From assembly GCA_028583605.1 (NCBI GenBank), contig CM053328.1:36199722-36263721 (forward strand): a stretch of 64,000 nucleotides of DNA. Direction: 5' to 3'. Below, piece after piece: positions 2,404 through 64,000 of the stretch. Position 1 is the first letter of the stretch. Every line of letters starts with the position of its first letter. The stretch is from Dastarcus helophoroides. Taxonomy: Eukaryota > Arthropoda > Insecta > Coleoptera > Bothrideridae. A program made the translations under genes and the position numbers. The notes beneath the pieces are model-generated. The model worked only from the letters and a program-made list of their open reading frames with translations, did no database searches and was not told the DNA's origin.

Positions 2404-2871
2404 ATGATCCTTTATGATAAATGACCAATTAAATGTTCTGTAATTAAACAGTTAAACGTGCTTAAAATTGAAAATATGTACAACCGCAACCATAGACTAG
2501 TTTCGGCCTTCCTTGGCCTCGTCAGCATGGTACGGTGGTTGTATACACTTCCAATTTAAAGCCGTTAGTCAGTCGTATAAGTATCCAAGAGAGCAAACCT
2601 CCATTGGGTGACTTGTAACTGACTTTTAACTGTTTATTACGCAAACATTTTCGCCACATGCTAGGTGAAAGTAAAGTCACGCCGAGGACGTTTGTGTCTA
2701 TGGATGTTGCGATGCAACCCGTGATACAAGCTTTGCCTCATCTACGTGAACTTTGCAATTGCAGTCTAATTTTCATTAGATTCTAATGAAATTAGATTTC
2801 AATTGCATCGTAATAAACTTGTATATATTCGTATATACAAGGCTTATTATCTCAGCATGATCCTTTATGTT
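2404..2871 (-). mobile_element. Small hammerhead-bearing retroelement-like insertion
   Basis: A 442-bp unique-looking block (2417-2858) sits inside AT-rich array and is flanked by the 13-bp direct repeat ATGATCCTTTATG at 2404-2416 and 2859-2871, which reads as a target-site duplication of retroposon length. It has no coding capacity. On the minus strand it carries a hammerhead ribozyme core (2479-2543). A rearranged second copy, lacking the ribozyme, lies at about 62766-63070. Self-cleaving ribozymes of this kind are known in Penelope-like elements, retrozymes and some SINE-like repeats. Which class this belongs to cannot be told from the sequence alone. Confidence 0.75.
2479..2543 (-). ncRNA. 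Type I hammerhead ribozyme with minimal helix III
   Basis: Read on the minus strand. The core box CUGACGA (2525-2519) is followed by helix II GGCC-AAGGAA-GGCC (2518-2505), the second core box GAAAC (2504-2500), then UA and the cleavage triplet GUC (2497-2495). Predicted cleavage is between 2495 and 2494. Helix I is closed by six pairs next to the core (GUACCA against UAUGGU, read outward from the core, first pair G-U), a 5/3-nt internal loop, and seven perfect pairs (UACAACC with GGUUGUA). All invariant core positions (CUGANGA, GAAA, UH) are present. Helix III has only two pairs with a 2-nt loop, too tight for a stable monomer. Known retroelement hammerheads of this shape cleave as tandem dimers. 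Not folded by software. Confidence 0.85.
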
Positions 2872-12897: not shown

Positions 12898-14601
12898 TTA
12901 ACGTCTTTTTCTTCCACCACTACTTTTCCCCTTTTTATGACCTTTTACAGCCTTGGGTTTCTTCGCTACTCTATTGCCCTTGAAATTCTTCTTGCTACTT
13001 TGAGCCTTTGGCCTATCGGTTTTCTTTTCTTCGGCTCTCCTACAAAGCTTACATTATAAAACCACTCGAGCAAAATATAATGATTTCTGCTTATAATGAA
13101 CCTCCGAAATTGACCTCTTATGAGCGACATTTGGATTAAACGAGAAATAGTAACAGCACTCCAATCCGTTCATTATAGATTGGTTTCTATTCATATTTTA
13201 TTGGCTTTTTCTTCGCCAGTTACTCCTTTCTCAATTCTAAATTTAAATAACCTTCTGTTAATGATTGGCAATCTGTTATAGATTGCTCCAAGCAGCGATT
13301 GCATTGGATCTTGATTTGTCAATCGCTGTTTGTGATTTAACATTGAAAAACAGTTAAAACCTATCTTAAAATTTAAACAACGATTGACAAACTAAGATCC
13401 AATGCAATCGCTGCTTGGGGCAATCTATAACAGATTGCCAATCCTTAACAGAAAGTTACGGAAACTAAAGTGAAAGGCGTAAATGGCGAAAAAAGTCAAT
13501 AAAACATGAATAGAAATGTTAATACCTCACAAAGAAAATACAGAGAATACAGATTGGTTTGTTGTAAAAAACAGTTCGCAATAAGCGCAGATGGCCAAAT
13601 ACTTACTGCAATTGTTCCGTGTTTATCTGGCGAGAGACCGCCTTCTCCACGTCAATCTTAGGCCTCTTATTCAAAACACTCTCAACAATCGACAAATTTT
13701 CCTTCTTTTCTTGATCCCCCGATACTGGAGGCATCTTCCGCTTTCGACTGGCCCCCGGGGTGATATCCGCAACACCTTTCGCTTCTTTCTCATGCGGAAG
13801 CTTATTTTGGAATTTCCCTAGACTAGCAGTCGATGATCTAGCCACTGTAACGGCCGCTTGCAGCTAAAAATCCAATATTACGTCACGCCACCGAATTATA
13901 AACAATACTTACATCTTTGGCGCTCGAAACATCCGGATTCATGAGCCCAACGCGCGGTATTTTAACGTTTTTCGCCTTCGCTATATTCCTGAGTCGTTGT
14001 AACTCATTCTTGGCGACTCGTTCGCTCTTCAGTTGCGCCTGCTTGGCGAATTGGTCTTCCATCGGGTTGGCGTTTTGAGGTACTTCCATCACCCAATTCT
14101 TCTCTTTTTCCGCGGCCGTTCGCTTGAAGCCGTAGAGTGGTACCCATTTTTGCAGTTGTTCGTCCCACGAGAGTTTACTCTTCTTTTTCTTTTGGATGCC
14201 TTTCTCTTGTGCGAACTTTTGCCACTTTGTTAACGGTTTGGGTTTTGGTACTGGCTTAAATCGCGGTAGAACTGTTTTTTGCGGGGGTAATTTGACTACA
14301 ATCGCTTCTTCTATTCGTTCGGTGGGTAGCTCCCATAGTTTATTAAATAGTAATTGAGTGTTATCCCGGGTTAAATTCAGTAGGTAGTCATTTGAATTTT
14401 GCCTGAATTAACAGCGTTAGTGGTTTGGATGAATTTAATTAGTGATACTTACCTCAAGGCTTGATTATCTAAATCGTTTGGATCTGTGGCTAAAAGAGTT
14501 CCTAGGTCATATTCTAAATCCAAATGTTTATTTACGGTTATAGATTTATATTTTTCACTTTCTCTAGATGTTTTTTCTAAAATATTATTCACTAACTCCA
14601 T
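12898..14601 (-). CDS. RRS1: RRS1 ribosome biogenesis regulatory protein, four exons
   Basis: Exons on the minus strand: 14601-14453, 14402-13913, 13863-13607 and 13039-12898. All junctions are GT/AG and the frame is intact to TAA, giving 345 residues (human RRS1 is about 365). Diagnostic stretches include ITVNKHLDLEYDLGTLLA near residue 24, LTRDNTQLLFNKLWELPTER near 60, KPLTKWQKFAQEKGI near 107, NPMEDQFAKQ then KSERVAKNELQRLRNIAK near 165-190, and a Lys/Arg-rich tail ending SSGGRKRR. RRS1 works with RPF2 to load the 5S RNP (5S rRNA, uL5, uL18) into nucleolar pre-60S particles, and the basic tail suits nucleolar RNA binding. The ATG at 14601 aligns with the family N-terminus. Intron 3 holds a foldback MITE. 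This is the one unmistakable housekeeping gene in the window. Confidence 0.96.
13253..13453. mobile_element. Foldback MITE in RRS1 intron 3
   Basis: A 201-bp element whose halves are inverted repeats of about 80 bp, starting TTCTGTTAATGATTGGCAAT on the left and ending ATTGCCAATCCTTAACAGAA on the right, with few mismatches. It lies wholly inside the intron 13040-13606 and would fold into a long hairpin in the RRS1 pre-mRNA. No clear target duplication could be assigned. Confidence 0.8.
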
Positions 14602-26282: not shown

Positions 26283-29200
26283 GGGTAGATGTACCGTTTG
26301 TGGCCACTTTAAGCTTTTTTGTATGTTTAATTGAGATTTAAATATATTTAAATTAAATATTTAATAAGAAAAAATAAATTAATCAAATCTTTAATTTATC
26401 AGGAATTGAAATATCAAAAGCCCAAATGTTTAAAATTTAATTTGTCATGCAAAATTAATTAAAATTAATAATTACACCAATTTCACCAGTAGTGGCCATA
26501 GAAGCACTATTTTTGGCCATTTGCTGTTCCAGTTTTGGTCATAGTGCCTGAAATTTTTTGCTGGAAGGGAATTATTAATAATATTATCTTAATTAACAAT
26601 CAATGCATCACTTTATTTATTAAATAGCTAGACAAGACACAAAAATTAGTAATACACATAAAATCATCAATTTTTTTTAGCATTTTTGCGCGGTTTAACT
26701 GATTTTTTTGGGGCTAATTTTTTCTTAACTTTTTCTTCCAATTTTTCTTCTTTAATTTTTTTTCTTCTTTCCTTATTTTCTTCCCTTTCGATTTTTTTAA
26801 GCTCTTTTTTTTTCTTCTCTTTCGATTTTTTTAAGCTTCTTTCTTTCTTCTTCTGCGCTTTTCTCATTCTCTTTAGCTTCCATTAGTTCGATCCACTTGT
26901 CAGCTGTGATTACGGAAGGTAAATGTTCTACCTTACGTTTTCGTGTCGTAGTCTTCTTTTTAGGCCACATACAAATTCCATCAATAACTTCGTCCAAAGA
27001 CTTTCGACGCATTGAAATACTGTTCAAATGAGAAACATTAGTTGTACTAACGTCCTCAACTACAGGCTCTATAATACCTTCCATAACAACAGGTTCTTGA
27101 ATAACTTCATCACTAGGAGGGATTACAATATTCGGGTTTTTATGATTATCTACGAGGATAGGAAATTCAATCGCAAGAGGTACTTCACAGTCGGTAATTT
27201 GGTTAAGAGTATCAGAAGGATAGGAATCCAACAGTTCATCGACTAAAAAAGTGCAAAAAAAATATCAAATTAAAATATAATTTAAAAATTTATAAATTAT
27301 CCAAAGAATAGATCACTGAAATAAATTCAACATTGGGAGATTATTTTTTAACTGTTTTTTCAATTTTATTCACCTTCATGAAGATTAGACGCATCAAACT
27401 CAGGAAAAGGAAATTCGAAAACATTATCATTATGAGAAGCCAAAGGAGAAGGATTTTCAGGAACTAGAGGATGACAAAGTGGGGATTGCAATTCATTTTC
27501 CGGTTTGTCATCTTCAACAGCCTGGGCCCAAAAATTGTACAATGACTCGTGTTTATCACCAGTTTCCCAATCAATACCTGTAGCTTTGGCATTTTTGAAT
27601 CGTTGTAATAGCTCAGGATTTATTTTACTCTCGATGTATTCTTGATGAGATAAGGCTTGCTGCATGATTCTTTGCGAATTTATTTCATTAGAAATATTTT
27701 GATTGTTTTCTCGATCTTTCATTTCGACACACTTGCTATAGTCAACTGAATTCGCATTAAACGGACATAAACCGCAAGCTTTAAATCCATTCTTTATGAC
27801 AGTCGTAAAATCTTCTTCAGTAATAAGTTTAGATAAAAAAGCTGGAACGTTATGTTTCTGAACATCAACACCATCATTTTGTATACGCCAGTTTCTTATC
27901 AAATTTTTCCATCTTTGCTTCAAAGGCAAAAAAAAAAAGAAACGTCCAATGGTTGTAAAATATGCGTGGAGTGAGGTGGAAAACAGCACAGGATAATCTG
28001 TTTATCCTTACAAAATTTACTCAGATGAATGGACATATGAGAAACATGGCCATCCAAGAAAACTATCACAGGAAGTTGAATTTTGCGTTCAAACAGGAAT
28101 GGATAGAAAACATTCGTGAAATATTCGTAGAAAGATTCACTAGTCATCCACCCATTCTCGGATTTTCCTATCCCCCAACCTTTGGGTGCCGAGTCAACGC
28201 AAATCTTAGGTAGTCGCTCATACTTGAAAATTGTCAGTGATGGTGCAAATTCTCCGGCAGCGTTTACATTAAAAAGTGTAGTAACATTTTCTTTTTCGTT
28301 TCCAGCAACATCATACACAGCTTTTCCCCTTTCTGCTAAAACAAGACCACCTTTTGGTGATAAATGAACTGCCGTCTCGTCCATGTCGAATACTCGTCGA
28401 GGATCATCAAGGATTTTAATATTTTCTCCCAGTTCTTCAGCTATATGAGAGAACCATGACCGTATACCAGATTCAGTGACGATGGCTCGAGCCTTACAGA
28501 GGTGTTCAGCCCTTTTTTGACCCACACGTGGATGCCTCTTAAGAAATCCTTCAAACCACTTTCTTCCCGGGATATTATTTTTAAAAGGATTTTTTAAACC
28601 TTCTGCGTCGACTAATTGTTTCACTGAATGAATTAAGAAATCTCTATTTATAGGAAAACCCATTCTGCTGGTTCCTAATAGCCATTCTTCTAATTTTTCT
28701 TCAATATGATGGCCAAGTATAGACTCAGGTCCTACTCGACCTGTAGTTTCTGGTACTTTGCCTCGAAGTTTACTACGTAATGTAGTTCTTGGGACTTTAT
28801 ATTGATTACACGCCGTTGCAATAGCACAACCATTCTTCACTAATTCCAAAGCTTTTTGTAAGTCAGTTTCTGAGTAATTAAAAAATGTCCTTTTAGATTT
28901 TTCCTTTTGAATACCAGTTTTTGTTGATTTTGGAATTTTTTCAACGGGCTTCTGATTTTTCCTTGATGGCATTTTAACCTGCAACAGATAAAAAATAATC
29001 TTTCAACACTACGTTTCTTTTCCAGTCTCTATTTCGAAATATTATCTTAATTGTTTGAATATTAATTATTAAATAACATACAGTTGGGCAGCAAAATACA
29101 TTAAATGAGTAAAAATTATGGCCAAAACTGGATAGTGTATGCACCATTTGTGGCCATGGTATGGCCACAAATAGCAATCACATGTTTTTATTGTTCCACT

Positions 29201-29600: not shown

Positions 29601-30974
29601 TATTAAACCCATTTTTTGACATTTTCACTTAAAGTCAACAATTTAAAAATTAATGTCAAAATATTTAGAAAAAAGCGTTGATGTTAAAGATAAAATTTTG
29701 AGAAGATGTATATTTTATTTTAAAACTATCACGTCTTTGTCTGCGTGAAAGAAGAAAAGGGATTTTTGGGTATCCTTTTTGAAAATTTCGACTTTTTTTC
29801 TAAACAATTCGATTTTTATTGGAAATTAAATTACAGTATCTGTCTGAAGATGATAGGTTGGCTATTGAAACGCGTTAGAGCAACCTCTGCTGTGTTTTTT
29901 TAATCTTTTTTTGGATTCAGAGGACAAGATTTGTATTTCAATCTTTGGAGTTAACCAAAGACCAGTCCGTTCCACCAAAATTTCGAATTATTTTGAAAAA
30001 TGCACATTTCAAAACACCATTTCAAAATTGCTCCGTTCGACTTCAACAATTTCAATTTTTTTTCAACAATTTGACGTAGTTTTAAAAATTTCCATTTTTT
30101 TCGAATTTTTGACTATTTTTTTATGCAGTAAAATGTTCAAATTGTTCTAATCTCGAGAAAAACCCAAAATTTTGGAAAAGTAGATTTCAAAAATGAGAAA
30201 AGTCGATTTTAAGGTCGTAATTTCTAGGAAAACAATAAGATGAAAATACTTAAAAGTCGATCAAAGTTTTGAGTTAATTTTTGGATAAAAAAGCTAAAAA
30301 ATAAACTTCTTCAAATTAATCAGAATTCCAAAATTAAAATGTTAAGTTAAAGCAAAAGTCGAAATACAAACCTTGTCCCCTGAAATCAAGAAAGATTAAA
30401 AAACACAACAAAGGTTGCTCTAACGCGTTTCGACAGCCAAGCTATCATCTTCAGAGTAACTCTCTGGCTGTCGAAACGCGTTAGAGCAAACTCTGTTGTG
30501 TTTTTTTAATCTTTTTTTGGATTCAGAGGACTAGATTTGTATTTCAATTTTCGGAGTTAACCAAAGACCAGTTCGTTCCACCAAAATTACGAATTATTTT
30601 GAAAAATGCACCCACTTTATTCAAAATTGCTCCGTTCGACTTCAACAGTTTCAACTTTTTCTCAACATTTTGACGTAGTTTTAAAAATTTCCATTTTTTT
30701 CGAATTTTTGACTATTTTTAAAAATTCCAACCTCTTTAAAATGTTGCTTCTTTGGTATATATTTTGATTTTTTGGAAACTCTTTTTGATATTTCTGTCTT
30801 ATTAATAATTATTTTTTGGATATTTCCTTTTCAATAATTCAATTTTTTTTTTAATAATTAGACTTATCTCAAAGGTTTAAGTTTTGTGGAAAATTTTTGA
30901 CCCTATTCACCCTTTTACCTTTATTTTTGAGCATTTTGACTTTATTCAAAATTATCATCCTATTAATGAAAATG
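29601..30974. repeat. AT-rich array with three dispersed-repeat copies
   Basis: Degenerate array without a gene. Copies of the dispersed repeat lie at 29838-29980 (plus) and as a head-to-head pair at 30369-30457 (minus) and 30458-30582 (plus), joined at their CTCTCTGAAGA ends. Confidence 0.75.
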
Positions 30975-36112: not shown

Positions 36113-38295
36113 ATGTTGTTATTTTGTTTCCTCAAATATGTAATTATATTTAGATTCTAGTACACACAGTAGTTCATAAAAAAAACACTAAACTGGGTGT
36201 CGTACTTCCGTAATTGGTACTAAGGCCAAAGAAGGCTGGACGCCCTCATATTCGTCAATAGCTTGTAAGCATTTTGTGTTGTAAGATTCGTTTCAATTAG
36301 TTTTTTATTCCAATTATAATACGGTAGTGAAGAACCTTTCCAGCTGAGAGGTGAGTTTTTGCCTTGACGGGTGCACCTTCCCTCTTTCTTCTCCACTCCA
36401 TGCTTGTTAGATTTAGGGATGTAATGGTGAGATCGTTCACCTCCTAGAGCTTTTTTCAGTGGCCCAGACATATGATAATCTCATGGTGATAAGTCGGGAC
36501 TATAAGGAAGGTGTTCTAATGTTGCCCAATGCATTTCCTCTAAGTTTTGATGTGTTAGATTGGCTGAGTGGGGGCGGGCATTGTCGTGAAGCAAAATCAC
36601 ATTTCTGACCGAAAATTCGCGCCTCTTCCGCCGATATGCACGTTTTCCTTCATCCAATAGGTGGCAGTAGTAGACGGCATTAACCGTACGACATTCATGC
36701 AGAAAATCGACGTGCACAATTCCTTTTAAATCCCAAAATACTGTCGCAAGAACCTTTCCAGCTGAGAGGCAAGTTTTTGCCTTGACGAATGCATCTTTCT
36801 CCTTTCTTATTCACTCCATGCTTGCTGGTTTAGATTCAGAGGTGTAATTGTGGACCCAAGTCTCATCACACGTAACGATACGTTGCAAAAAACCATCACC
36901 TTCACGTTGAAAACGTCCAAGACGGCGCTGATAAATTTCCAAAAGTTGTTGTTTCTGTTCTTCTGTTATTCTGTTATTCTTCTGTTAAAACACGAGTTAC
37001 CCAACTGGTAGAAGTTTTTCGAAATCCCAGCTCATCTGTAATGATGGATTGAGCACTCCCAAAGCTTACCCTTATCTGAGCTGCAATTTCATCAACAGTT
37101 GAACGGCGATTACCTTCCAAGAGGCGTTGAACAGCCTGGAACATGCTGGTGCGAGGACGACAAGCATGGGGTTCATTTCCAACTTGACTTCGTATTTCCA
37201 AATTTTTTTTGTGCCATTCAATACTCTTGAATTTTCTTCAAACAAGTATCCCCAAAGTCTGCTTCTAATCTACGAAGAATTTCGGCAGGCTTTACACCTT
37301 TAACGGCAAGAAATTTAATTATAATGCTCTGCGCAACGTGCGCATGACCCTCTTGTTCACTCGTTGTATTTACAACTGACGAACGGAGAGAACGGTATTC
37401 GCTTGAGCGCAGGAAGTAACGACATCATTGCATTATTTTGGAATCTTTTCCCAGTTTCTGGCTAGATTCATTAATTCCAAAACGTCAACTTCGAATTACT
37501 ATATATTTTCCTCCGGGTTGTGTTTTCTGTATAAAGCAGTATTTGATTTTTTTGTCTATTTTTCGCAGGTGGGCTTATTTTTCCTTTACACGACATTCTC
37601 TGATGGAAGTAAAGTGCAGGAATGCTACAAGGTGGGTGACTATTGCGCCACCTGCACTACCGTAGTAAAATGCATCTACGATGGTCAAAAATACATCAAC
37701 GTTAGCCAGTACCAGTGTCCAACTGATTCGACTTGTAAAAATGGGACTTGCGTCAACCAAACCATACCAAATCCAGAATGTGATGGTACTTTGGATATAC
37801 CAATACCATGTTTACACATAGGTACTTGTTTGACACCTTTGATTTAAAAGTTGTATGATTTTGTCTTATTAGGTCAATTTCCTCACGCTTACCTTTGGAA
37901 TAAATACGTATTTTGTGTGCATATACCAGCCGTAAATTCCTCCCAGGACAATCTGACTGCCATTGTGGCTGATTGTGACAGCGGGATACGCATACGATCC
38001 CGAAACTGGTTACTGTTCTACCAATATGTCTGATATTGAAGATGGATCGTATCCAGTACCTCCTTGTGCTAATGCGAATATTATAGAAGCTTTAGAGGGT
38101 GATCCCACCATCTTTTTTATTTGTACCGAGAAGGAAACCCCGAAGAATCGCAGGGTTTTATATCCGGTGTTCAACATGTGTGCACATGGAGGGATTTTTG
38201 ATGCGGATGCTAGAGCGTGCGCTGATAGGAATAACTATAAGAATTCTACTACAAGCGAAGGTACTACGACGGAATTGACTACGGCAACCGCATAA
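36113..38295 (+). CDS. Secreted peritrophin-like protein P1, with +1 shift
   Basis: Exon 1 is 36113-36139 (MLLFCFLKY, donor TAT|GTAATT), exon 2 is 37569-37821, exon 3 is 37873-38295. Exons 1+2 form the signal peptide (MLLFCFLKY + VGLFFLYTTFS), then a Cys module (ECYKVGDYCATCTTVVKC) ending IPIPCLHI. Exon 3 reads GQFPHAYLWNKYVFC, then VADCDSG, then YAYDPETGYC, a last CBM14-like module (FFICTEKE, FNMCAHGGIFDADARAC) and a Thr-rich tail. As in the 17-19 kb paralogue, the sum of exons is one base too long and a +1 shift falls between CDSG and YAYDP (near 37987). Intron 1 is 1.43 kb against 122 bp in the duplicate, because a broken mariner lies in it. Likely secreted, chitin- or matrix-binding. Confidence 0.7.
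36190..37420 (-). pseudogene. Rearranged mariner transposase fossil in P1 intron 1
   Basis: Minus-strand fragments match the 38708-40001 mariner: EIAAQIRVSFGSAQSIITDE (37201-36974), then LLHDNARPHSANLTHQ and YSPDLSP (36717-36481), with stops and shifts. The segment 36335-36460 duplicates part of 36745-36870, so the copy is internally rearranged. Neither terminal repeat was found: homology to the intact copy stops near 37418. The equivalent intron of the duplicated gene (49915-50036) lacks it, so it inserted after that duplication. Confidence 0.85.
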
Positions 38296-38707
38296 TTAAC
38301 TGAAATTTATACCTTGTTTGTAATGATACAGATGTTATATCTCCTGCTTTTAATATTAAATTTTTAAAAAAATCATTTTATATTTATTTCAGCATGAACA
38401 AAAATAACCTTGTCTGATTCCTACGAGAATAACTTTAAACATATGAAAGTATTAGTATAAGTAGAGGATTTAGCCCCGGGATCCTGATTTTCAGGATTAA
38501 AACAAGCAGTAGCACTGCTACATGATTATTATTGTTATGCTTTTTTAATATGATTAGCTTAATGATATATTTTTTTTATTTATACGACGCAAATTTGGCT
38601 GAATCGGATGTTTAACCACGAATACGTCTAAACGTTGCTAAATCTTTAACAATGCGATTGAGAAACACTTAACAACGATGCCCCTTTGTTAACTATCTAA
38701 TTAGCTA

Positions 38708-40001
38708 CGAGGGTAAATCAAATATGATCCGGAATTTTTATCATCTCGCCGTGAGGGCGTCGGGAGTGTGCGCATACACTTAGACATGTTAGGTGGAGAT
38801 ATCACGTTACTTCCTGCGCTCAAGCGAATACCGTTCTCGCCGTTCGTTAGCTGTAAATACAATGAGTGAGCAAGAGATTCATCCGCACGTTGTACAGCGC
38901 ATTATTATTAAATTTCTTGCCGTTGAAGGCCTAAAGTCCGCCAAAATTCTTCGGAGATTAAAAGCACAGTTTAGGGATGATTTTTTGAAGAAAATTCATG
39001 TGTATGAATGGCACAAACAATTTTTGGAAGGACGAACTTAAGTTAAAATTCCATGCTCGTCGTCCTAGGACCAGTGTGACTGCCGACAAGATTAACGCTG
39101 TTCAACGCCTCTTGAAAAGTAATCGCCGTTTAACTGTTGAAAAAATGGCAGCTCAGATAGGGATAAGATTTAGGAGTGCTCAATCCATTATTACAGATGA
39201 GGTGGGGTTTGAAAAAACTTCTACCAGGTGGGTACCTCGTCTTTTAACTGAAGAACAGAGACTACAACTTCTGGGGATTTGTTAGCGCCGTCTTGGACGT
39301 TTTCAACGTAAAAGTGATGGTATTTTCCAAGGTATTGTTACGTGTGATAAGATTTGGGTCCACAATTACACCTCTGAATCGAAACCAGCAAGCATGGAGT
39401 AAATAGGAAAGGAGAAAGATGCACCCGTCAGGCAAAAACTTGCCTGTTAGCTGGAAGGTTCTTGCGACAGTGTTTTGGGATTTAAAAGGAGTTGTGCACG
39501 TCGATTTTCTGCATGAACGTCGTACGGTTAATGCTGCCTACTACTGCCACCTATTGGATGAAGCAAAACGTGTACATATCGGCGGAAGAGGCGCGAATTT
39601 TCGGTCAGAAATGTGAATTTTGCTTCAAGACAATGCCCGCCCCCACTCAGCCAATCTGACACATCAAAAATTAGAGGAAATGCTTTGGGCACCATTAGAA
39701 CACTTTCCTTGTAGACCCGACTTATCACCATGCGATTATCATATGTTTGGGCCACTGAAAGAAGCTCTATGAAGTGAACGATTCCATGATGACGCTGCTG
39801 TTGAGAGATTTGTGCGCAATTGGTTGCAAATACGCCTCCCTTCTTTTTATGATGATGTCATTAAAAACTCTCAATTCGTTAGAAAAAATGCATAATAAAA
39901 TCAGAAGGTTATGTAGCAAAATAGTTAATAACTTTCATATATGTATCTTGTACCAATAAATTTTTAAAAACAAATTCCGGTTAATATTTGATTTACCCTC
40001 A
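38708..40001 (+). mobile_element. mariner element, 1.29 kb
   Basis: Inverted ends CGAGGGTAAATCAAATAT and ATATTTGATTTACCCTCA, flanked by TA (38706-38707, 40002-40003). Length is typical of mariner. It contains a decayed transposase. Confidence 0.93.
38862..39935 (+). pseudogene. mariner DD34D transposase pseudogene
   Basis: Starts ATG 38862 (MSEQEIHPHVVQRIIIKFLA), a helix-turn-helix N-terminus with YEWHKQFLEGR, then a frameshift near 39035, ARRPRTS and a second HTH with SAQSIITDE. Catalytic stretches follow: VTCDKIWVHNY (first Asp kept), LLQDNARPHSA (second Asp) and PDLSPCDYHMFGPLKEA (third Asp, 34 residues on). Several in-frame stops (after LLGIC, SKPASME and KEAL) make it inactive. Confidence 0.92.
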
Positions 40002-40265
40002 TAATCACGAAGTTAACTACTTTTATAGAATCGGGCTTAAGTCTAGTTAGTCTACCTCTTAAGTCTTCGTTGTTACCGTAAAACACGTTGATTTTTTTCT
40101 AAATTTTAATTTCGTTGTTCTCTCAATTTTAATTTGTTGGTTTATTTGCAATCCTCCACACCGAACTAATCCCCGGATCCCGGGATTAGCCAAGTTTAAA
40201 TTCGAAATTACGGGATTAGAAATATGGACCGGGATCGAATTCCCTAACTCTAATGTATAATTCAA

Positions 40266-40292
40266 TACTTGTTGTTGTTGTTGTTGTTGTTG
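40266..40292 (+). repeat. (TTG)n microsatellite
   Basis: About nine TTG/GTT units in a row in intergenic DNA just before a head-to-head pair of dispersed repeats. Confidence 0.9.
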
Positions 40293-40306
40293 ATAAATTG
40301 AAATAC

Positions 40307-40522
40307 AATGATCGTCCCCTAAAACCAAGAAAGATTTAAAAACGTAACGAAGTTTGCTTTAATGCGTTTCGACGGCCAAGCTATCAGGTTCAGAGAGATG
40401 ATAGCTTGGCTGTCGAAACGCGTTGGGGCAACCTTTGTTGTGTTTTTTAATCTTTCTTGGTTTCAGGGGACAAGATTTGTATTTCAATTTTTGAAGATAA
40501 CCAAGGACCAGTCCGTTCCACC
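40307..40522. repeat. Dispersed repeat, head-to-head inverted pair
   Basis: A minus copy (about 40307-40396) abuts a plus copy (40397-40522) at their CTGAAGA/CTGAACC ends. Same family as 22113-22248. The plus copy ends with the GACCAGTCCGTTCCA block. Confidence 0.85.
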
Positions 40523-40726
40523 AAATAAAAGTTGCTGTTGATGTTCGAAATTTCCCACAAATCAATATGATTTTTCATGAGATTACAAGATAAGTCTAAA
40601 TAATCACTAGGTATGTATTGCAAAGCATAATGCATTTTGTTAATAGTAGATTTTTGATATTCTTATCTAAAAAGCAAAAAGCGCTAAAGCGGCGAAATAC
40701 AAAGCCAATTTTTAAAATGCGAAATT

Positions 40727-40752
40727 GTGAAATTGTTTCATAAATAAGTATA
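40727..40752 (+). promoter_or_regulatory. Promoter of peritrophin-like gene B1
   Basis: GTGAAATTGTTTCATAAATA, the same block found before B2 (43800-43822, with CTATAAAT), before B4 (52878-52901) and as an orphan at 47183-47205. It ends about 50-55 bp before the ATG and includes a TATA-like box. Confidence 0.6.
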
Positions 40753-40802
40753 TGAGTTGAGGGTGTTGGAATGTAGATGTATTATAGTGTTTGAATCAGG
40801 AC

Positions 40803-43442
40803 ATGAAAAGGTCGATCAAGATGTTGTTCTTTGCTTTGGTAAGTTTGCACGTTTATTTCAGTCTTCTAGCAACGACACATTCCTAAAATCCAAAAGAAAT
40901 TACAAATTGGGAATTTCTAAAGTAAGAGATTTTTTATAGTAGAAAGATGTCGTCATTGATCGAAATTGATACTCTGTTGCGGTTTTATTAAAAGTATGAA
41001 AATTTTGTTGTTGTCACGTTTAGTTTTTACTTGGATTCGTATTCCGGAAGCAATGCTTTCTTCTTCCAGTAGGAAACCAATAATAAAATACCCCAAATTC
41101 AAATTAGATCTACTGAGGAAGTGGTAGTAATAGTTTTCTGTGACATACGTTCTTTAGATTGGATCATATCAGGAAAATTGTCAAGAACCCTTCGTCCATT
41201 CAGTGGGACAACCGAAATAAAACTTGAACACTACCAAAGACTAATCCCTTCAGGAAAATGTGTAAATCATTTTGATCCTATCAGTAAAATCGTTCCTGTT
41301 TTTGTTTCGACCTGTTCCTGTTTTGGTTTCGACCTGTTCCTCTTCTTTTTTCGATCTGTTCTGTTTTTGTTTCGATCTGTTTCTGTTTTTGTTTCAATCT
41401 CCTCTTGTTTCTAGTTTCAATGTTATATGAAAGTGATGTTTACAGGCGACATATGTTAGTCTTGGTATCTGCGTAGCTGAATTTTTACCAAATATGCTGA
41501 TGGAATGTCAAAAATCTGGATCATATTGCGACGATTGCTACCATGCTGTGGTTTGCATATATGAAAATGGGCATTACGTGAACGTCAGCGTAATTGAGTG
41601 TGACAACGCCACGATTTGTCAAGATGGAAAATGCATTACACCCGATAAAGATGATATTAATCCCGCTTGCGACTGCAGTTTTAAAGTGGAATTTCCATGT
41701 AAAAACCAAGGTATGTATCCATATCCAAACATTTCTTGTCCCAAAAACCTAAAAGAATTACGATTAATGCATATTACATCGAAAAAAAAAAACAAAAACA
41801 CTTGTTCAGGGGATCAATAGAGCGTCAAGTTTGTAATTGAATAGATACTCGAATATTTATCTTTTTTTATAATTACAAATATTTGATAGTTTTGGCTTTA
41901 CTTAAAAATAATACAAAAGCCAAAAATTTGAAACAAAAGTATCAAAATTCATATAAATAATAAATTTTAAAACTTCGACTTCAAGCTCTTAATTTTGACT
42001 TTAAATTAGCATTCGGCTCGAAATTTCGCTATAAAAATCAAAATATCGAGAAAAAATTAACGTGCAATGTACAATTACAATATTTTTAGTAAAATTAATA
42101 AAAAAATCCTAATTTTGATTTTTAATAAAAAATTGAAATTTTATATAAACTTTCAGACATAAAATAAAAATTACAAATTTGGAGCAGAAGATTAAAATTT
42201 CAAAAATGAATTCGAAATTAAAATAAAAATCGATTCTCAAAACCCTTTCATATCGAAACTTTGATGAAATCAAATATATTACTTTTTCTTTCATATTTCA
42301 TTTGATTTTAACGATTTATACAAAAAGTTGCGAAGGGTCTTATTAACGGATTACGTTCGTTTTGCGAGAGAATTTCAAATGTCGTTGATGTTGAAAACAA
42401 TCAATAGAGGACTAAGAACATTTCTTAATAAAAAAAGCAAGTAAATGGTATGTTGATATAAAAGTAGATTTAGCTTTGATCCAAGATTAAACTTGATAAA
42501 AATGCAAAATGCGTTTTTCCGGTCTTTATTTATTAGGTTCAAATAATTCAAAACTATCCGATCAAAGGACAAAAATTCAGATATGTCGCAAAATTTTAAC
42601 CAATATTCAATTGTGTCACTAACAGAAAACGGTTAGGAAGCACTACTCGCTCATCGGAAAGTTGGTTTAAAATAGATTGCAAATTTGTAATAGACATATA
42701 TTTAATGTCGATTACATTTTCAATTACAGACAAGAAAACGAGTTAATAAAAACGTGTTAAAAATATGACAGCTTGGTTGATTTTTTCCTAGAGAGACAAT
42801 TTAATTCATAATTTTTGTATAAGACTTAAACTAGCATAATAATTCTACCGACTCAAAAACCGACCCTCAGTTTTGTGGTTCAACTACCGAATAATGTTTG
42901 GCAATCTAAATAAAAGTCCCCAAGAAAAATCGCACAAATTTTGATTAAACTTTTAATGGTATTAAAAGAACCTAAGCTTTAACATGAAATCTCAAGAAAG
43001 AGATGACCATTTATGTTACTGGCAGTTAGCCGGGCGCCTTAGAAACTCGAACTCCCACCACAGTAGGACATGAGAATAAAATATTACATTTTTCAGGACT
43101 ATTCCCACACCTCTACATCTAGACCAAATTCGTTTTTTGCGCCCTAACAGACAATGACACTTATACTGCCGTTCCTCAAGACTGTGAAGATGAAAACATG
43201 GCATACAATCCAAAAACCAAGGACTGCTCCATCCCTATTGATAAAATTCCATCAGGTTATCCTCTTCCACTGTGCAAGAATGTTGGCGATATGACGGCCT
43301 TATCGAGCGATTCGAATATTTATTATATTTGCAACATGGAACCCTGCAACCAGGAAGATGAAGAAGAAAAGGTTATTTATCCCGAACAGCTCAAGTGCCT
43401 TCTAGAAAGACATTCAATACGAAACTAGCAGAGTGCTCTTGA
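40803..43442 (+). pseudogene. Peritrophin-like gene B1, broken in its last exon
   Basis: Exon 1 is 40803-40838 (MKRSIKMLFFAL, donor GTAAGT), exon 2 is 41446-41710, exon 3 is 43097-43442. The signal peptide MKRSIKMLFFAL + ATYVSLGICVA is followed by Cys module ECQKSGSYCDDCYHAVVC and a CDCSFKVEFPCKNQ end. Exon 3 would read GLFPHLYI, but the codon that is Trp in the duplicate B3 is TAG here (43116-43118). A 1-bp deletion near 43400 also shifts the final Cys module, ending at TAG 43426-43428. Promoter, exon 1 and exon 2 look sound, so a truncated secreted protein could still be made. Confidence 0.75.
41290..41405 (+). repeat. 22-bp pyrimidine-rich tandem repeat
   Basis: About five units like GTTCCTGTTTTTGTTTCGAC + CT, period 21-22 bp, just upstream of the B1 exon 2 acceptor. 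A shortened version is at 50408-50488 in the duplicate, right at the fusion junction. Confidence 0.8.
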
Positions 43443-43814
43443 TCTTAATCATTATTTTTAACAGTAGTTTTACATAAGAGTTTTTATTTTAGTTAGTGCT
43501 TAGGAGTAAAAAAATATTGCATTCAAGCACTAGTTGTAATTTAAATCGTTAAATTTGAAGTTCTGAATGGATCTATAATTTTTTTTTTGGTACAAAATGT
43601 AAAAAATTTCAAAGTGCATTAAACTACGACACTAGATAATTCAAGACTTAAGTATTCAAGAGGGTCCATATGATTCTTCATCAAATTAAGAGGTAAAAGT
43701 TTTAACAATCGCCAAGTATATATTACAAAATAAAATGCATTTAGTTAACAGCAAGTTTTTAATATTCTATTGTTCTTCTGTCATTCACCATACAAAAGCG
43801 TGAAATTGTTTCAT

Positions 43815-43838
43815 CTATAAATTTGTATATATATATAC
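43815..43838 (+). promoter_or_regulatory. TATA region of gene B2
   Basis: CTATAAATTTGTATATATATA, about 70 bp before the ATG at 43887, preceded by the shared GTGAAATTGTTTCAT block. Confidence 0.6.
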
Positions 43839-43886
43839 GAGATTAGCACGTTCAAAAGTAAAACGTATTTGCACCAGACATAAAAA

Positions 43887-46259
43887 ATGTGGTTCAAAAT
43901 ATTGTCCTTTGTCGTGGTAAGTTCATGGTTTCTACTTACAACTTTAGCAATTAAATATTCTCATAATCCAAAACAATTGATCAAAAACTTATATGGTAAA
44001 ATTATTTTTAAAAAGTTAAAATAAATCGTCATTTACTGAAATTGATTCTACTTCGCTGTTTATTTGTGGCTGCATCGAAAACAGAAACATTTTAGATGTC
44101 TTCCTTTCCTGCCAGTTCAGTATTTAACTGAATACTTATTTTGGAATCAACAAAAGCAGCCGAAGGCGTGGGGAATGAGAGTGATCTCTGAGGATCTCAT
44201 GTCCTGGAATGTTGGATTTTTTATAGTGCGGTAGCCGAAATAAAGCTTGAATCCTACTGAAAACGAATCTCTTCAGGCAAACGTGTATATCATTCTGATC
44301 CTATCAGAATTGTTCCTGTCTGCTTCAGGCTCCTCTTGTTTCTTGTTTCAATGTTATATTGAAGTGATGTATGTCCAGGCGATATGTCAGTCTTGGCATC
44401 TGCGAAGGTGAAAAATGCGATAATCCCGATGATATTTACCCCAATTAGCAACTGCCAAGTTAGATTTAAATGTAAATATCAAGGTATGTACTCATATCGA
44501 AACAGTTCTAGTCTAGATGCCTAAAAGAACTATGACAAATTTCTATTCCATTGAAAAAGAAAAAAAACTGAAACACTTGCTCAGGTGATCACTTGAGCCT
44601 TAAGTTTGTAATTGAATAGAAACTTGAATGTTTAATTTTATTCTTTAAACTTCGAAATCGTTAAAAAATTACAAATTTTTGACAGTTTTGGCTTTACCTA
44701 AAAATACAAAAGCTAAAAGTTCGAAACGAAAATATTAAAATTCATATAAAAAAATAAATTTCAAACCTTCGACTTCAAGCTCTTAATTTTAATTTTAAAT
44801 TAACATACATTCGACTCGAAGTTCGCTATAAAGGTCAAAATATGGAAAAAAAATTGACATATGATGAACAACAACAAAATTTTTAGTAAAATTAAATTAA
44901 AAAATCATAATTTTGTTTTTTAATAAAAGGGTAAAATTTTATATAGGGTTTCACAAAAAAAATTAAAATTACAAATTTGAAACAAAAGATTAAAACTTAA
45001 AAAATGAACTCGAAATTTAGATAAAAATCGTTTCTCAAAACCTTTTAATATCGAAAACTTGATGAAATCGATTACCCTACTTTTTCTTTGAATTTTCATT
45101 TGCTTTTTACGATTTATACAAAAAGTTGATATTTCGCGAAAGTTTTTGTTAACAGATTAGGTTTGTTCTGCAAGAGAATTTCAAATGTTGTCATTATGGA
45201 AAAAAATCATAAGAAAACTAAGAACACATTTTAATAAAAAATGTAAGAAAATGGCAAGTTGATATAAAAATACATTTAGTTCTGAACCAAGATAAAAATT
45301 GATAATAATGCAAAATAATGCAAAATGCGTTTTTCCGGTCTCTATTTATTAGGTTCGAACGATTCAAAACTATCTGATCAAAAAACAAAAATTCTGATGT
45401 GTCGCAAAATTTTAACTAATGTTCAGTTGTGTCACTAACAGAAAACGGTTATGAATCACTACTCGCTCATCCGAAAGTTAGTTTAAAATAGATTGCAAAT
45501 TTGTAACAGACATATGTCAAACGTCGATTACATTTTCAATTACAGACGAGAAAACGAGTTAATAAAAACGTGTTAAATATATGGGAGTTTGGTTGATTTT
45601 TTTCTACAGGAACAATTTAATTCATAATTTTTCTGTAACGCTTAAATTAGTATAATAATTCTACTGACTTAAAAAAAGGCCCTTGGTTTTGTGGTTCAAC
45701 TACCGAATAATATTTAGCAACCTATATAAAAATCCCTAAGAAAAATCTCACAAATTTTGATTAAATTCTTAATGGTATTAAAAAAACCTAACCTTTACCA
45801 TGAAATATCGAGTCATTGGCAGTTCGTCGGAGTAACTAGACACTCGGACCCCCACCACAGTAGGATATGAGAATAAAATATTTCATTTTCCAGGGATATT
45901 CCCACACCCCTACATTTTGACCAAATTCATTTTTTGCTCCCTAATAAATGATGGCACTTTTGATGCCATCCCTCAAGACTGCGAAGATAAAAAGATGGCA
46001 TACAATCCAGGAACCAAAGACTGCTCCAAACCTCTGGATAAAATTCCATTAGGTTATCATCACGTATCGTGCAAGAATTCGGACGAAGTAGTGGCCTTAT
46101 CGAGAGATCCGAATATTTTTTATCTTTGTAAAATGACACTGCAACCTGGAAGATGAAGATGAAGAAGAAGGAATTAAAGTTCTTTATCCCGAATCGCATA
46201 GGTGTTTTCCTGGAACAAAATACACTGTGAAACGTATTGGGTGCAAGAGATCTCAATAG
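43887..46259 (+). pseudogene. Peritrophin-like gene B2, multiply frameshifted
   Basis: Exon 1 is 43887-43916 (MWFKILSFVV, donor GTAAGT intact), exon 2 is 44379-44483, exon 3 is 45894-46259. Compared with B4, exon 2 has lost two bases near its start (GCGATATG for GCGATATATG) and gained one later, so a TGA follows within 11 codons. Exon 3 (GIFPHPYILTKFIFC, QDCEDKKMAYNPGTKDC) has a 1-bp insertion at about 46138-46145 that cuts off the last Cys module. Exon 2 is short (105 bp), lacking the first Cys module of B1/B3, as in B4. Confidence 0.75.
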
Positions 46260-46479
46260 CTGTATTTACTAGTAGTTTTAAATAAGATTTTTTATTTCAG
46301 TTAATGCCTAGGAACAACAAAAACATTGCATTCAAGTACTATTTTTAATTTAAACCCTTAAATTTAAAGTTCTGAACGAATCTATAATTTTTTTTTTTTT
46401 TGTACAAAATGTCAAAAATTTCGAAGTGCATCTAACTCCGATACTAGACAATCCAAGACTTTAGTATTCAACAGTGTCC

Positions 46480-46850
46480 ATAAATCATATTATTGCGCGT
46501 TATCGGTTCGAAAATTAAAAACTTCGTGAATTGTAATCACTTTATTTCCAAACTAATTTCGTAACTCTACAATTATAATTCACTTAACTGCCCAATTGAC
46601 TAATTAACCAACTAACTAACTCACTGTTTAATTGACTGAGTGAGAGAAAGATGACGGCCTATTTATAGGTTTCGTTCCGATTTCTAGAACGGACCTACAG
46701 ATAAGACTTATCGCTTACGAAAATGTCTAAGAGCGCTTATCTGTTGTATAATTCATTATTGAGACCGCTTCCTATTATCAATTTTTTTTTTGAAAATTTC
46801 TTACTAAATCAAGTTTTATAACTCATTTTGTTACGATACGATCTACGCCA
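46480..46850. other. Duplicated non-coding tail of the B unit
   Basis: About 46490-46790 is repeated at about 55565-55860 in the same orientation (shared words GATGACGGCCTATTTATAGG and AGATAAGACTTATCGCTTAC). It marks the right edge of the 9.08-kb-spaced duplication. No gene. Confidence 0.8.
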
Positions 46851-46859
46851 CTGGAGATG

Positions 46860-47105
46860 TTAGTGAACTTTCATAATAAGGCGATATTAGCCCTTTACGA
46901 GATATTTTATGTCACTAAATATTTTTTAAATATTACTGTTCATTTGAGAAATGTAAAATAAAATCGTTTAAAAAATGAAGAGTTTAACACTGTGTATCTC
47001 AAAAACGGTACGTTAGAGGCATTGTTATATATAACAAAGTCACACTATTTTTTGATAATCTATAGTTCCTTAACGTTTCCGCTATGAATAGCGGACCATT
47101 CTGCA
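46860..47105 (-). repeat. Transposon-end copy, inverted relative to 55950
   Basis: About 250 bp matching 55950-56200 in reverse, with GGTACGTTAGAGGCATTGTT and AAATATCGTAAAGGGC-type words. It is probably an end of a Tc1/mariner-like or similar element. Confidence 0.75.
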
Positions 47106-47560
47106 TATTACAAAATATAATGCATCAAGATAACACCAAATTTTTAATATTCTATTGTTCTTCTGTCATTCACAATACAAAGGCGTGAAATTGTTTCATC
47201 TATAAATTTGTATATGTACATGTTACGGCTAAAATGAATACTTGGATAGTTTTAAAACTAACCAGCTAGTTTGCAAACTTTGTACTGGGAAAGCTGCTAT
47301 TTTGAAAAAAAACAGTCATTTCCAACAAACTAGCGGATGCCAAAATGAGAGTTCAGAAACTGCCTGGTTAGTTACCTAACTATTTGCTTTAGTTTATTTA
47401 TGTTACGGCTAAAATTGGTTGATTTTGAAACTAACGAATTTGCTTTCAAATTAGCTAACGAAGCTGTTATTTTGAAGGAATCGGCCGTTTCGTAAAATAA
47501 CATATAATCAGTTGATAGTTCAGAAATTAGCTGGTTGTTGGAAATAGAATCTGCATTTGT
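47106..47560. repeat. Orphan B promoter and 180-bp tandem duplication
   Basis: 47108-47218 copies the B-gene promoter region (TTCATCTATAAATTTGTATA) but stops before any coding exon. It is followed by two diverged units starting TGTTACGGCTAAAAT at 47220 and 47400 (period 180 bp). From 47561 to about 48430 there is AT-rich DNA without a supported gene. Confidence 0.65.
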
Positions 47561-48436
47561 TTGAATGATGGTCCTTATTTAAGTTATATGGCAATATAGA
47601 TTAACAATGTTTGTGGAGAACAAATTTATTCACGTTTTTATACATAACATACAACTCTTTAAAAAACGGTTGCTAACACAACTAAACTATTATTTGTTTC
47701 ATTTAACAAGGTGGAGGTATTTTGATTGTCTCGCTCCAACAGCATTGACATTCAAATCGATATTTCGAGTTTTTTCTCGACATTTCCAATTAAAATTTAA
47801 ATATTCATTGAAATGGAAACATTTATTCTAATGAGGTTTAAGTTCGAAGCGCTTAAGCTTAAAAATTCGAGTGTTTGTGTAAATTTTGCATTTAAAGCTG
47901 AAATTTTTAATAAAAATGTGGTTATTTGGAAAAATAGCCTCATTTATTAAAATAATTAAATTTCAAGCGGAAACTTTAGATAAAACGTCGTTATTTGGAA
48001 AACAGTTTCATTTATTTTAAAAAAGTCTGAGAATTTCGAGTTTAGCTTAAAATTTCGGAAATAAAATCAACTGAGATTCAAAATTATTTGATTTTGAAAA
48101 ATTATACTAATTTAAATTGATTTAATTTAGATTTAAATTTAGAAAAATAAAATTTTAATTCCGACATTTTTTCCACTTTAATCTGCAGATTTCAATTTTG
48201 AACTCCAATTTTTTTGAGAAATTAAAATATTTAAGTATAAATTTGTAGCCAGATGCTTCTAAGCATTTCACAGTTTCTTCTGAAAATTTCAAACAACTTC
48301 CAAATTTTTGTAGAAATTCCAAAGTATTTGTGACGTAATATCTACCTCTTAAATTTATCTTGAACATCTCAAATTTAATGATTTAATTTCAGCTTTAAAT
48401 TAATAATTTCATTAATAATTTTTCTTTCACTTATTT

Positions 48437-49142
48437 TCTGTTGAAATACAAATCTTGTCCCCTGAAACAAAGATTATAAAAAGAAGAGTAAAAAACACAA
48501 CAAACGTCGCTCCAACGCGTTTCGATAGCCAAGCTATCATCTTTAGAGAGATAAAGCAACCTTTGTTGTGTTTTTTAATCACTCTTAATCTCAGGGGGCA
48601 AGATTTGTATTTCAATTTTTAGTGATAACCAAGGACCAGTTCGTTAAATCAAAACTATTTTTCTGTAATTTCGAATTGAATCCCAAATTTCAAATTTTAT
48701 AGTTGCAATTTCAAGAACTAACATTCACGATATGCAAAAAGAATATTTTCGCGTTTTTCAAGAAATTTTGGTGGAACAGACTGGTCTTTGGTTATCTTCA
48801 AAAATTGAAACTGAAAGAACTTTAGAGGTTGCTCTAAGATGTTTCGATAGCCAAGCTGTCATCTTCAGAGAGAAATTTTGATTTTCAAAATCAAAGTTTT
48901 TAAACGAAATAAAAAAAAAGTAAACATTCTTACAGAGGCGAAATTCGAAACAAAAAACTGAAAGGGGGAAGCTGTTTTCAAAAGGTTAAAACAAAGCAGA
49001 CATTTCACTAAATTTGTTTATTCTTTTTAAAAAAAATCCACTCTCTAAAGATGATAGCTTGGCTATCGAAACGCGTTAGAGCAACCTTTGTTGTGTTTGT
49101 TAATCTTTCTTGGTTTCAGGGGACAAAATTTGTATTTCAACT
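48437..49142. repeat. Four dispersed-repeat copies in mixed orientation
   Basis: Copies at about 48437-48550 (minus), 48551-48645 (plus; head-to-head with the previous one), 48770-48872 (minus) and 49046-49142 (plus). All share CAAGCTATCATCTTYAGAGA or its complement and the GGGGACAAGATTTGTATTTC block. Confidence 0.8.
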
Positions 49143-49887
49143 TCCATTTTTTTTAAACAGACAAAATTATTTAGAAATTTCAGGAATTTCTACTTTTGAC
49201 TTAATTTCGATTATAAAGAAAAATTTTAAATAACAAGCTAACAATCTTTAGTTTCATGCTGAAATGTCAATTTTGTCCCAATAGACTTTAAACTCAAAAT
49301 TTCTTTTATCCCAAATTTTAAGCCACAAGGGTAGAATTTGGTCTCAAAATTGTGAACTGTTTTTTGGAAATGTTATCCTTCTTTTATCCTCGATATTGAA
49401 AAAAAAAGCAGCAAATCCTGCTTTAGGTTAGACCCCCAAAAAAAACGAAATTTACAAAAAATGTCTGATTTGTTAAAATTTTAAAAAGGTAGAATATTCT
49501 GATTTTTTGAACCGGAAAGAGTGCTTTCATTACTATTTGTTTTTTATAATATTTTTGTAATTTCAAAAATATTAATTTTAGATCTAAATATAGTTGAAAT
49601 GGAGGAAAAAACCAAAACCAGAATAAAATCATAAAAAAAATTGGCTTACCAATAATTTTTCTCTGAGAACAAAAATACCTTTCATTATTATTTACGTTTA
49701 TTGTATTTATTAATTATTTATTGTAACAATACTAACGACTTTTTATCACTTTTTCACTCATGAGACATAAGTAGTCATTGTTTTACCTCAAAATTAAGTG
49801 TAGCTACTATTTTCATCTAATGGTTTCTAAGATAATTTCAGTTAAATTGGTTTTAACCCAAATAAAATCGTTACTTGCGGCAATTTA

Positions 49888-52531: not shown

Positions 52532-52893
52532 TCTTTACCAGTAGTTTTACATAAGAGTTTTTATTTTAGTTAGTGCTTAGGAATAAAAAAATATTGCATT
52601 CAAGGATTAATTGTTATTCAAATCGTTAAATTTGAAGTTCTGAATGTATCCATAATTTTTTTTTTTTGGTACAAAATGTCAAAAATTTCAAAGTGCATCA
52701 AACTATGACACTGGATAATGCAAGACTTAAGTATTCAAGCGGGTCCATATGATTTTTCACCAAATTAATAGGTAAATGTTTTAACAATCGCCAAGTATAT
52801 ATTACAAAATAAAATCCATTTAGGTAACACCATGTTTTTAATATTCTATTGTTCTTCTGTCATTCACCATACAAAAGCGTGAAATTGTTTCAT

Positions 52894-52901
52894 CTATAAA
52901 T
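52894..52901 (+). promoter_or_regulatory. TATA box of gene B4
   Basis: TCTATAAA within the shared GTGAAATTGTTTCATCTATA block, about 65 bp before ATG 52966. Confidence 0.6.
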
Positions 52902-52965
52902 TTGTATATGTATATACGAAATTAGCACGTTCAAAAGTAAAACGTATTTGCACCAGATATAAAAA

Positions 52966-62625: not shown

Positions 62626-62765
62626 TTTGCCAATATAAAAGACGATTTAATTTTTGCTAATTGATATTTTTGAAATCTTAATTAATTTAGTGTAATATTA
62701 TCATTTTTACATTTATAAATAGGTTTCATTAATTGTTATCAATTTTTTTTTATATCTTCTTTGCT

Positions 62766-63070
62766 GAGATAATAAGCCTTTTATATACGAATATATACAA
62801 GTTTATTACGATGCCATTAAAATCAAATTTCATTAGAATATAATGAAAACTAGACTGCAATTGCAAAGTTCACGTAGATGAGGCAAAGCTTGTATCACGG
62901 GTTGCATCACAACATCCATAGATACAAACGTCCTCTGCGTGACTTTACTTTCATCTAGTTTTGACAAATGACCAATTAAATGTTCTGTAATTAAACAGTT
63001 AAACGTGCTTAAAATTGAAAATATGTACAATTGAAATTGGATTTCAATTGCATCCTAATAAACTTGTATA
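62766..63070. mobile_element. Rearranged second copy of the hammerhead-type element
   Basis: 62766-62962 matches 2660-2862 in reverse (shared GATGAGGCAAAGCTTGTATC). 62965-63023 matches 2417-2483 directly (AATGACCAATTAAATGTTCT). The last 40 bp again match the 2800 region directly. The ribozyme-bearing middle (2486-2655) is missing. The head-to-head arrangement makes the locus self-complementary. Confidence 0.75.
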
Positions 63071-63540: not shown

Positions 63541-63544
63541 ATGC

Positions 63545-63935: not shown

Positions 63936-64000
63936 CTACCTCCTTAGCCATTCTTTCGTCGGATAATGGCCCTGTCACCTTCAGGTTGACGCGCTTCCAA

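What the first reader, a model, noticed from the sequence alone, without database searches (positions are those of the whole stretch)
2404..2871. Hammerhead ribozyme in a small insect retroelement with a 13-bp target duplication
All invariant hammerhead positions are present on the minus strand (CUGACGA, GGCC/GGCC helix II, GAAAC, GUC), with a two-part helix I and an internal loop able to contact loop II. Helix III has two pairs and a 2-nt loop, the form expected to act as a dimer in tandem transcripts. The host element is non-coding, about 440 bp, and flanked by 13-bp direct repeats, so it looks like a retroposed self-processing RNA.
Basis: partly seen in the sequence, partly recalled or inferred. 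Interest (0 to 1): 0.92.

Follow-up and report, generated by a model that had tools for sequence, protein, structure and literature searches.

The report
Hammerhead retrozyme inserted as inverted arms
A small non-coding jumping element carries an RNA motif that should cut itself; this genome holds about two thousand matches to that motif, and the shape of the sampled insertions suggests that a ring of RNA was copied inward from both cut DNA strands, which hints at the enzyme that moves such elements in animals.

Summary
The hammerhead is real: all invariant positions lie at window 2525-2495 (minus strand), in a 440-bp non-coding insert flanked by an exact 13-bp repeat. Its core (up to 2 mismatches) occurs 2,032 times in the host genome, the reversed pattern 0 times. 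The true unit is 466 nt, often in tandem: a metazoan-type retrozyme. The window copy is a short two-armed insertion: two oppositely oriented pieces, each with the RNA's 3' side at the flank, meet in the middle inside one target duplication. In the listed hits 29 of 29 strand switches have this order. In 41 of 45 two-armed insertions one outer end lies near unit position 249 and the other near 445. In the least diverged arrays, units of both arms are nearly identical, as if one circular RNA had been copied repeatedly. Head-to-head arms, short duplications and a start about 80 nt beyond the ribozyme cut resemble published Penelope-like insertions; Penelope-type proteins are common here. Ribozyme activity, the RNA circle and the helper enzyme are inferred, not shown. 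That the host is an insect was not tested.

The parts
2404..2416 (.). left copy of the 13-bp target duplication ATGATCCTTTATG
   Evidence: exact repeat; placed at the insertion edge
2417..2669 (-). site-1 arm (Q): unit positions about 244 down to 1; last ~9 bases (2661-2669) are shared with the other arm
   Evidence: L042 3134-3391 = window 2412-2669, of which 2412-2416 belongs to the target repeat
2495..2525 (-). hammerhead core; predicted cut between 2495 and 2494
2477..2545 (-). hammerhead with two-part helix I
2661..2856 (+). site-2 arm (P'), ending at unit position about 445; contains two AT-rich hairpins
2857..2869 (.). right copy of the 13-bp target duplication
62749..62763 (.). left copy of a 15-bp target duplication of the second copy; the right copy lies beyond the window
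   Evidence: L041
62763..63030 (-). second copy, site-2 arm (unit about 446 down to 178); its part of Q stops short of the ribozyme core
   Evidence: L041 780-1052
63032..63070 (+). second copy, start of the site-1 arm (unit 376-414), split at 63070 by another element; the rest, with a ribozyme, lies beyond the window
   Evidence: L041 1054-1092 and 5309-5604

Best explanation
A non-autonomous hammerhead retroelement of the metazoan retrozyme kind with a 466-nt unit. SHOWN by sequence in this genome: about 2,000 ribozyme-core matches; tandem copies of the unit; sampled insertions made of one arm, or of two arms with the 3' side of the RNA at each flank; target duplications around many of them; two preferred outer-end positions, about 80-83 and 277-280 nt downstream of the predicted ribozyme cut; near-identity of the units of both arms in the least diverged arrays. 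INFERRED: tandem transcripts are cut by the hammerheads, singly or as dimers; the monomer is closed into a circle; a reverse transcriptase primed by both nicked target strands copies the circle, one strand from each start site and sometimes for more than one round; the two cDNAs join in the middle, often at self-complementary stems. The enzyme is most likely that of a Penelope-like element. The window copy is a short product of this kind, one arm of about 245-250 nt and one of about 196 nt.
For: Copies and control. Unit and tandem; 44 of 52 same-strand neighbour pairs under 1 kb lie exactly 466 apart. Order of arms: 29 of 29 switches - to +, 0 + to -, in 145 clusters from 300 listed of 3794 hits. 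Ends: 41 of 45 two-armed insertions pair one end at u238-258 with one at u434-456; 17 of 18 one-armed ones end at site 1. Target repeats of 8 bp or more: 41 of 60 against 181 of 3532 shifted placements; 36 of 45 two-armed, 5 of 15 one-armed. Template: in the 8 of 22 arrays that differ least from the others, units differ by 0-1.51% within an insertion and about 3% between; arms agree as well as units of one arm. Penelope-type proteins. Matching Penelope literature: PMC3846280 passages, PMC11167929 main text.
Against: No RNA, no cleavage and no helper shown. Rfam score is below threshold. Four of 45 two-armed insertions break the end rule (L023, L033, L048, L062). One-armed insertions show target repeats in only 5 of 15. 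In the other 14 of 22 arrays units within an insertion differ by 1.4-6.2%, in some (L040, L073, L078) as much as or more than between insertions, which age would explain but does not prove. A homogeneous genomic tandem array could also give uniform units. No sequence shared with a Penelope-like element was found; the link rests on shape. The absence of inner ends at the ribozyme cut (0 of 106, 2.5 expected) is not significant.
Confidence: 0.7

Rival explanations
1. A linear tandem transcript, not a circle, is the template: read-through RNA of genomic arrays is copied from both target strands.
For: Genomic arrays of two to three units exist and could be transcribed; in vitro the Anolis Penelope enzyme uses uncleaved RNA, and ribozyme mutants insert as well (PMC11167929).
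Against: Units in an insertion are more alike than units of different insertions in the least diverged arrays; arms pass several predicted cut sites (L092-L094). Neither excludes a homogeneous array as source.
Confidence: 0.25
2. The helper is a LINE with twin priming, not a Penelope-like element.
For: Twin priming also gives inverted 5' parts (recalled for L1); many insertions are one-armed and truncated. LINEs of this genome were not surveyed.
Against: Two preferred start sites, one per arm, and multi-unit arms on both sides are closer to the Penelope descriptions. No poly-A or simple-repeat tail was seen at site 1 in the flanks printed.
Confidence: 0.2
3. The 440-bp piece is a SINE-like monomer; arrays and inversions are later DNA rearrangements.
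For: Many P-Q copies of similar length exist.
Against: Single target duplications enclose whole arrays; order and outer ends are regular; most P-Q copies break within Q at differing points.
Confidence: 0.04
4. A DNA foldback element or satellite that merely contains hammerhead-like palindromes.
For: Strong self-pairing (z -10.3 linear; -10.4 for the circular unit), AT hairpins, tandem arrays.
Against: Ends are not terminal inverted repeats; one-armed copies are truncated at differing points; the ribozyme core is kept in 49 of 55 copies.
Confidence: 0.04

Closest known systems
Metazoan non-LTR retrozymes (Cervera and de la Pena 2020, PMC7229834; abstract, introduction, part of results, discussion read)
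   Same: Non-coding, AT-rich, tandem repeats with a type I hammerhead, target duplications longer than 4 bp, highly self-paired RNA; Penelope-like elements coexist in the genome.
   Different: Unit 466 nt against the reported 150-450 bp repeats and ~170-400 nt RNAs; minimal rather than canonical helix III; two-armed insertions with two preferred ends, not described in the parts I read ('inverted' occurs 0 times in its text).
Penelope-like elements (PMC3846280, passages; PMC11167929, main text)
   Same: Head-to-head inverted copies, palindromes at the junction, 8-10 bp target duplications, an extension on one end only, hammerhead upstream of an internal start of reverse transcription, both strands extended.
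   Different: No reading frame here; the two ends are ~197 nt apart rather than a 31-bp tail; no shared sequence shown.
Minimal type I hammerheads that cleave as dimers (Lunse et al. 2017, seen only as a cited reference)
   Same: Very short helix III, tandem copies.
   Different: Dimer action not tested here.
pDo500 satellite hammerheads of cave crickets (PMC2837043, listing only)
   Same: Hammerhead in a repeated insect sequence.
   Different: Described as satellite DNA; no sequence comparison was made.

Membership tests
Hammerhead ribozyme, type I | Invariant core CUGANGA ... GAAA ... UH between three helices, helix I open | tested here: met
   49 of 55 copies intact; 92.3% of pair cells paired against 24-32% when slid
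Hammerhead ribozyme, type I | Score above the curated Rfam threshold | tested here: not met
   HH9 22.7 of 52 bits; nothing at gathering; RF00163 in the own genome found only L061, 32.6 of 34 bits
Hammerhead ribozyme, type I | Self-cleavage | not testable with these tools
   bench test
Metazoan non-LTR retrozyme | Hammerhead in short non-coding tandem repeats | tested here: met
   466-nt tandem units
Metazoan non-LTR retrozyme | Repeat size 150-450 bp, GC below 50% | tested here: inconclusive
   466 nt is just above the range; the unit printed is plainly AT-rich but its GC was not computed
Metazoan non-LTR retrozyme | Target duplications longer than 4 bp | tested here: met
   8 bp or more in 41 of 60, median 12 of those
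Metazoan non-LTR retrozyme | Expressed as circular RNA | not testable with these tools
   no RNA data
Penelope-like element | RT and GIY-YIG reading frame | tested here: not met
   no frame of 60 aa or more was looked for in the insert beyond the 100-aa list, which shows none in 2417-2856; so not itself a Penelope-like element
Works like a Penelope-like insertion | Head-to-head arms and short target duplication | tested here: met
   29 of 29 switches; 36 of 45 two-armed with repeats of 8 bp or more
Works like a Penelope-like insertion | Internal start downstream of the hammerhead | tested here: met
   u246-249 is 80-83 nt beyond the cut; 85-92 nt in Anolis by my subtraction

The most novel reading that the evidence does not exclude
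A circular hammerhead RNA is reverse-transcribed, at times for several rounds, from both nicked target strands at once by a Penelope-type enzyme that starts at two different fixed sites of the circle, one per strand. The genome then holds thousands of readable records of bilateral rolling-circle target-primed reverse transcription, and the helper of an animal retrozyme is identified.
Probability: 0.42. Interest if true: 0.78.

Novelty: new variant of a known kind. Interest (0 to 1): 0.63.

Why it matters
A 2020 review says that animal retrozyme repeats show no conserved motif from which the helper retrotransposon could be deduced (PMC7761336, section 9); its authors elsewhere name Penelope-like elements as a strong candidate (PMC7229834 discussion). 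Here the shape of the insertions, rather than a motif, points the same way, and the arms record where copying began, how far it went and how the two cDNAs were joined. That makes two open questions directly testable: which enzyme moves animal retrozymes, and whether the RNA circle is the template.

Tried and rejected
Two pattern searches in the window found nothing because my patterns did not fit the real spacing. Viral contigs held no exact match to the core pattern or to the P end. The idea that P-Q copies are a separate lineage was dropped when their inner junctions proved to differ. A count of direct P|Q junctions did not complete, nor an own-genome HH9 search. RF00163 in the own genome gave one hit, which lies in another repeat (L061); the search scored 73 of 91202 candidates, so it says little about this family. 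Other hammerhead-like strings in the window (CTGAAGATGATAGCTTGGCTGTCGAAACGCG, four places by regex) put U against C at the first helix II pair by my reading and were not pursued. Nine literature searches listed, by title and abstract start, no report of two-armed retrozyme insertions; their lists were capped at 15-20 rows and most subscription papers are not held, so absence from print is not claimed.

Full report
WHAT IS THERE. The hammerhead is on the minus strand at 2525-2495, with a two-part helix I spanning 2545-2477. Rfam sees it only weakly (HH9, 22.7 of 52 bits; E 0.0045 on 701 bp, 0.41 on the window), so the deciding check was copies. The own genome (538.9 Mb in 50 contigs; window = C4:36199722-36263721) holds 1011 + 1021 core matches with up to 2 mismatches and none for the pattern read backwards. 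Of 55 ribozyme copies in the loci L021-L060, which were fetched by similarity to the whole insert, 49 keep the core. Core cells vary less than the rest (7 of 624 against 86 of 2903, N7 left out, 52 rows). Pairing holds in 92.3% of cells against 24-32% in slid controls; shuffling of partners changes this little (91.7%), and double changes are few (5 cells in 2 pairs), so covariation is at best weak. One pair I included, columns 2-70, is unpaired in 26 of 30 rows. Ten of 33 distinct rows have A-U for G-U at pair 1.1-2.1, and three have U-A for C-G in outer helix I.

THE UNIT. With m for positions on the minus strand of 2417-2856, copies split into P (m1-196), Q (m197 to the end, with GTCAAAA beyond m438) and a 21-nt linker L, of which the window copy could hold only the last ~9 bases. 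The repeating unit is Q-P'-L, 466 nt, with P turned round relative to the window copy. Of 52 listed same-strand neighbour pairs under 1 kb, 44 lie exactly 466 apart (14 of 19, 15 of 17, 15 of 16 for the three patterns). Junction Q-P' occurs 959 times and P'-L-Q 803 times with up to 2 mismatches, reversed controls 0. The circular unit folds far better than 60 shuffles (-162.4 against -99.3 kcal/mol, z -10.4).

THE INSERTIONS. I aligned 73 loci to one genomic unit; 65 are independent: 45 two-armed, 18 one-armed, 2 fused by the aligner (L029, L055). With + for ribozyme-sense, each of the 45 reads - then +. In the listed coordinates (300 of 3794 hits, 145 clusters) there are 29 switches - to + and none + to -. 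So both arms have the 3' side of the RNA next to the flank, as target-primed reverse transcription from both strands would give. Outer ends recur: 41 of 45 pair one end at u238-258 (commonest 249) with one at u434-456 (commonest 443); exceptions L023, L033, L048, L062. Of 18 one-armed insertions 17 end at site 1; two of these (L087, L090) have their other end near site 2. The sample is mixed: L021-L060 favour P-Q forms because the query was one; L092-L094 were chosen as long arrays; among the 24 loci behind the first 30 listed exact core hits, 7 are two-armed and 17 one-armed. Target repeats of 8 bp or more flank 41 of 60 insertions against 181 of 3532 shifted placements (5.1%): 36 of 45 two-armed and 5 of 15 one-armed. 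They enclose whole arrays (L092 ATGTATTACATA, L094 TATGTATTCTTTG).

HOW IT PROBABLY WORKS. Arms reach about three units (L092 1176 and 1295 nt, L093 1351, L094 about 1455). In the 8 of 22 arrays that differ least from the others (2.9-3.3%: L021, L022, L025, L079, L088, L092, L093, L094), units within an insertion differ by 0-1.51%, and the two arms agree with each other about as well as units of one arm (for example L092 0.19% across and 0.14% within arms, L094 0.34% and 0.76%). In the other 14, older by that measure, the within figure is 1.4-6.2% and in some no lower than the between figure. A circular template copied more than once fits; a transcript of a homogeneous tandem array remains possible. 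Of 106 inner ends none lies within 5 of the ribozyme cut, 2.5 expected: no excess of run-off there, but not a significant depletion. Inner junctions often join positions that face each other in the stems (u25 with u202 in several loci; u250 with u458 in the window copy), which suggests joining by annealing (my reading).

WHOSE ENZYME. Penelope insertions in a rotifer are described as mostly head-to-head, with 8-10 bp duplications in some copies, palindromes at the inverted junction and a 31-bp tail optionally on one inverted repeat; those authors prefer self-priming on an antisense template to explain it (PMC3846280, passages), a different mechanism from the one I propose. In the Anolis element the ribozyme cut is 26 nt and the start of reverse transcription 111-118 nt into the ORF, 85-92 nt apart by my subtraction; both target strands are extended, and ribozyme mutants insert as well (PMC11167929, main text). 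Here the predicted cut is after u166 and site 1 is u246-249, 80-83 nt apart. The genome gave 150 GIY-YIG matches (150 of 1070 candidates scored); one, in L095, sits in an open frame of 490 aa with RVT_1 (E 6.2e-13) and GIY-YIG (E 2e-5). LINEs were not surveyed.

THE WINDOW COPIES. The copy at 2417-2856 is a short two-armed product: a site-1 arm (to about 2669) and a site-2 arm (from about 2661), meeting at a shared TTCA..TAG stretch. It has one ribozyme. A second two-armed copy begins at 62763 and is split after 63070 at TA by about 4.2 kb of other DNA; its far end, with a ribozyme and the matching 15-bp repeat, lies beyond the window (L041).

KNOWN OR NEW. Animal retrozymes are known, with insects mentioned (PMC7229834). 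This family matches that kind apart from a slightly longer unit. Its insertion pattern did not appear in the listings of nine searches, which is weak evidence of absence. I rate it a new variant of a known kind, above an ordinary member because the pattern bears on the open question of the helper enzyme.

Noticed in passing
L061 (G000:C12:4331007-4331049), locus about 1500-1600: A different hammerhead, GAUCU-AACU-AGAUC helix II, at 32.6 bits to RF00163 (cut-off 34), facing a near-copy on the other strand: perhaps a second ribozyme family with head-to-head arms.
   Followed up: partly
window 63071-64000 and on (L041 1093-5308): About 4.2 kb between two TA steps inside the second copy, with similar inverted ends (CACTATGGGCCAGTACAC / reverse of GTGTACTGGCCGATACTG), looks like a mariner-type insertion; L036 breaks off at the same AT palindrome beside similar letters.
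   Followed up: no
window 22114, 29844, near 30454, near 48868 and other places: A dispersed repeat with the string CTGAAGATGATAGCTTGGCTGTCGAAACGCG, about 100 bp, in many places and both orientations, often near-palindromic; not a proper hammerhead by my reading.
   Followed up: partly
window 30402-30502, both strands: Matches to the mir-2041 Rfam family below threshold (37.9 and 35.9 of 70 bits), at an inverted pair of the repeat above; probably only the palindrome.
   Followed up: no
window 27920-29002 (-): A transposase frame with DDE_1, HTH_Tnp_Tc5 and HTH_psq domains, 360 aa.
   Followed up: partly
window 36481-36810 (-): A partial Transposase_1 (mariner-type) frame.
   Followed up: partly
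window 13883-14407 (-): RRS1, a ribosome biogenesis gene, E 3.6e-53.
   Followed up: partly
window about 37400-55300 (+): Several related cysteine-rich frames, perhaps tandem chitin-binding genes by look; the two tested (41437-41820, 49956-50315) hit no Pfam family at E 0.001.
   Followed up: partly
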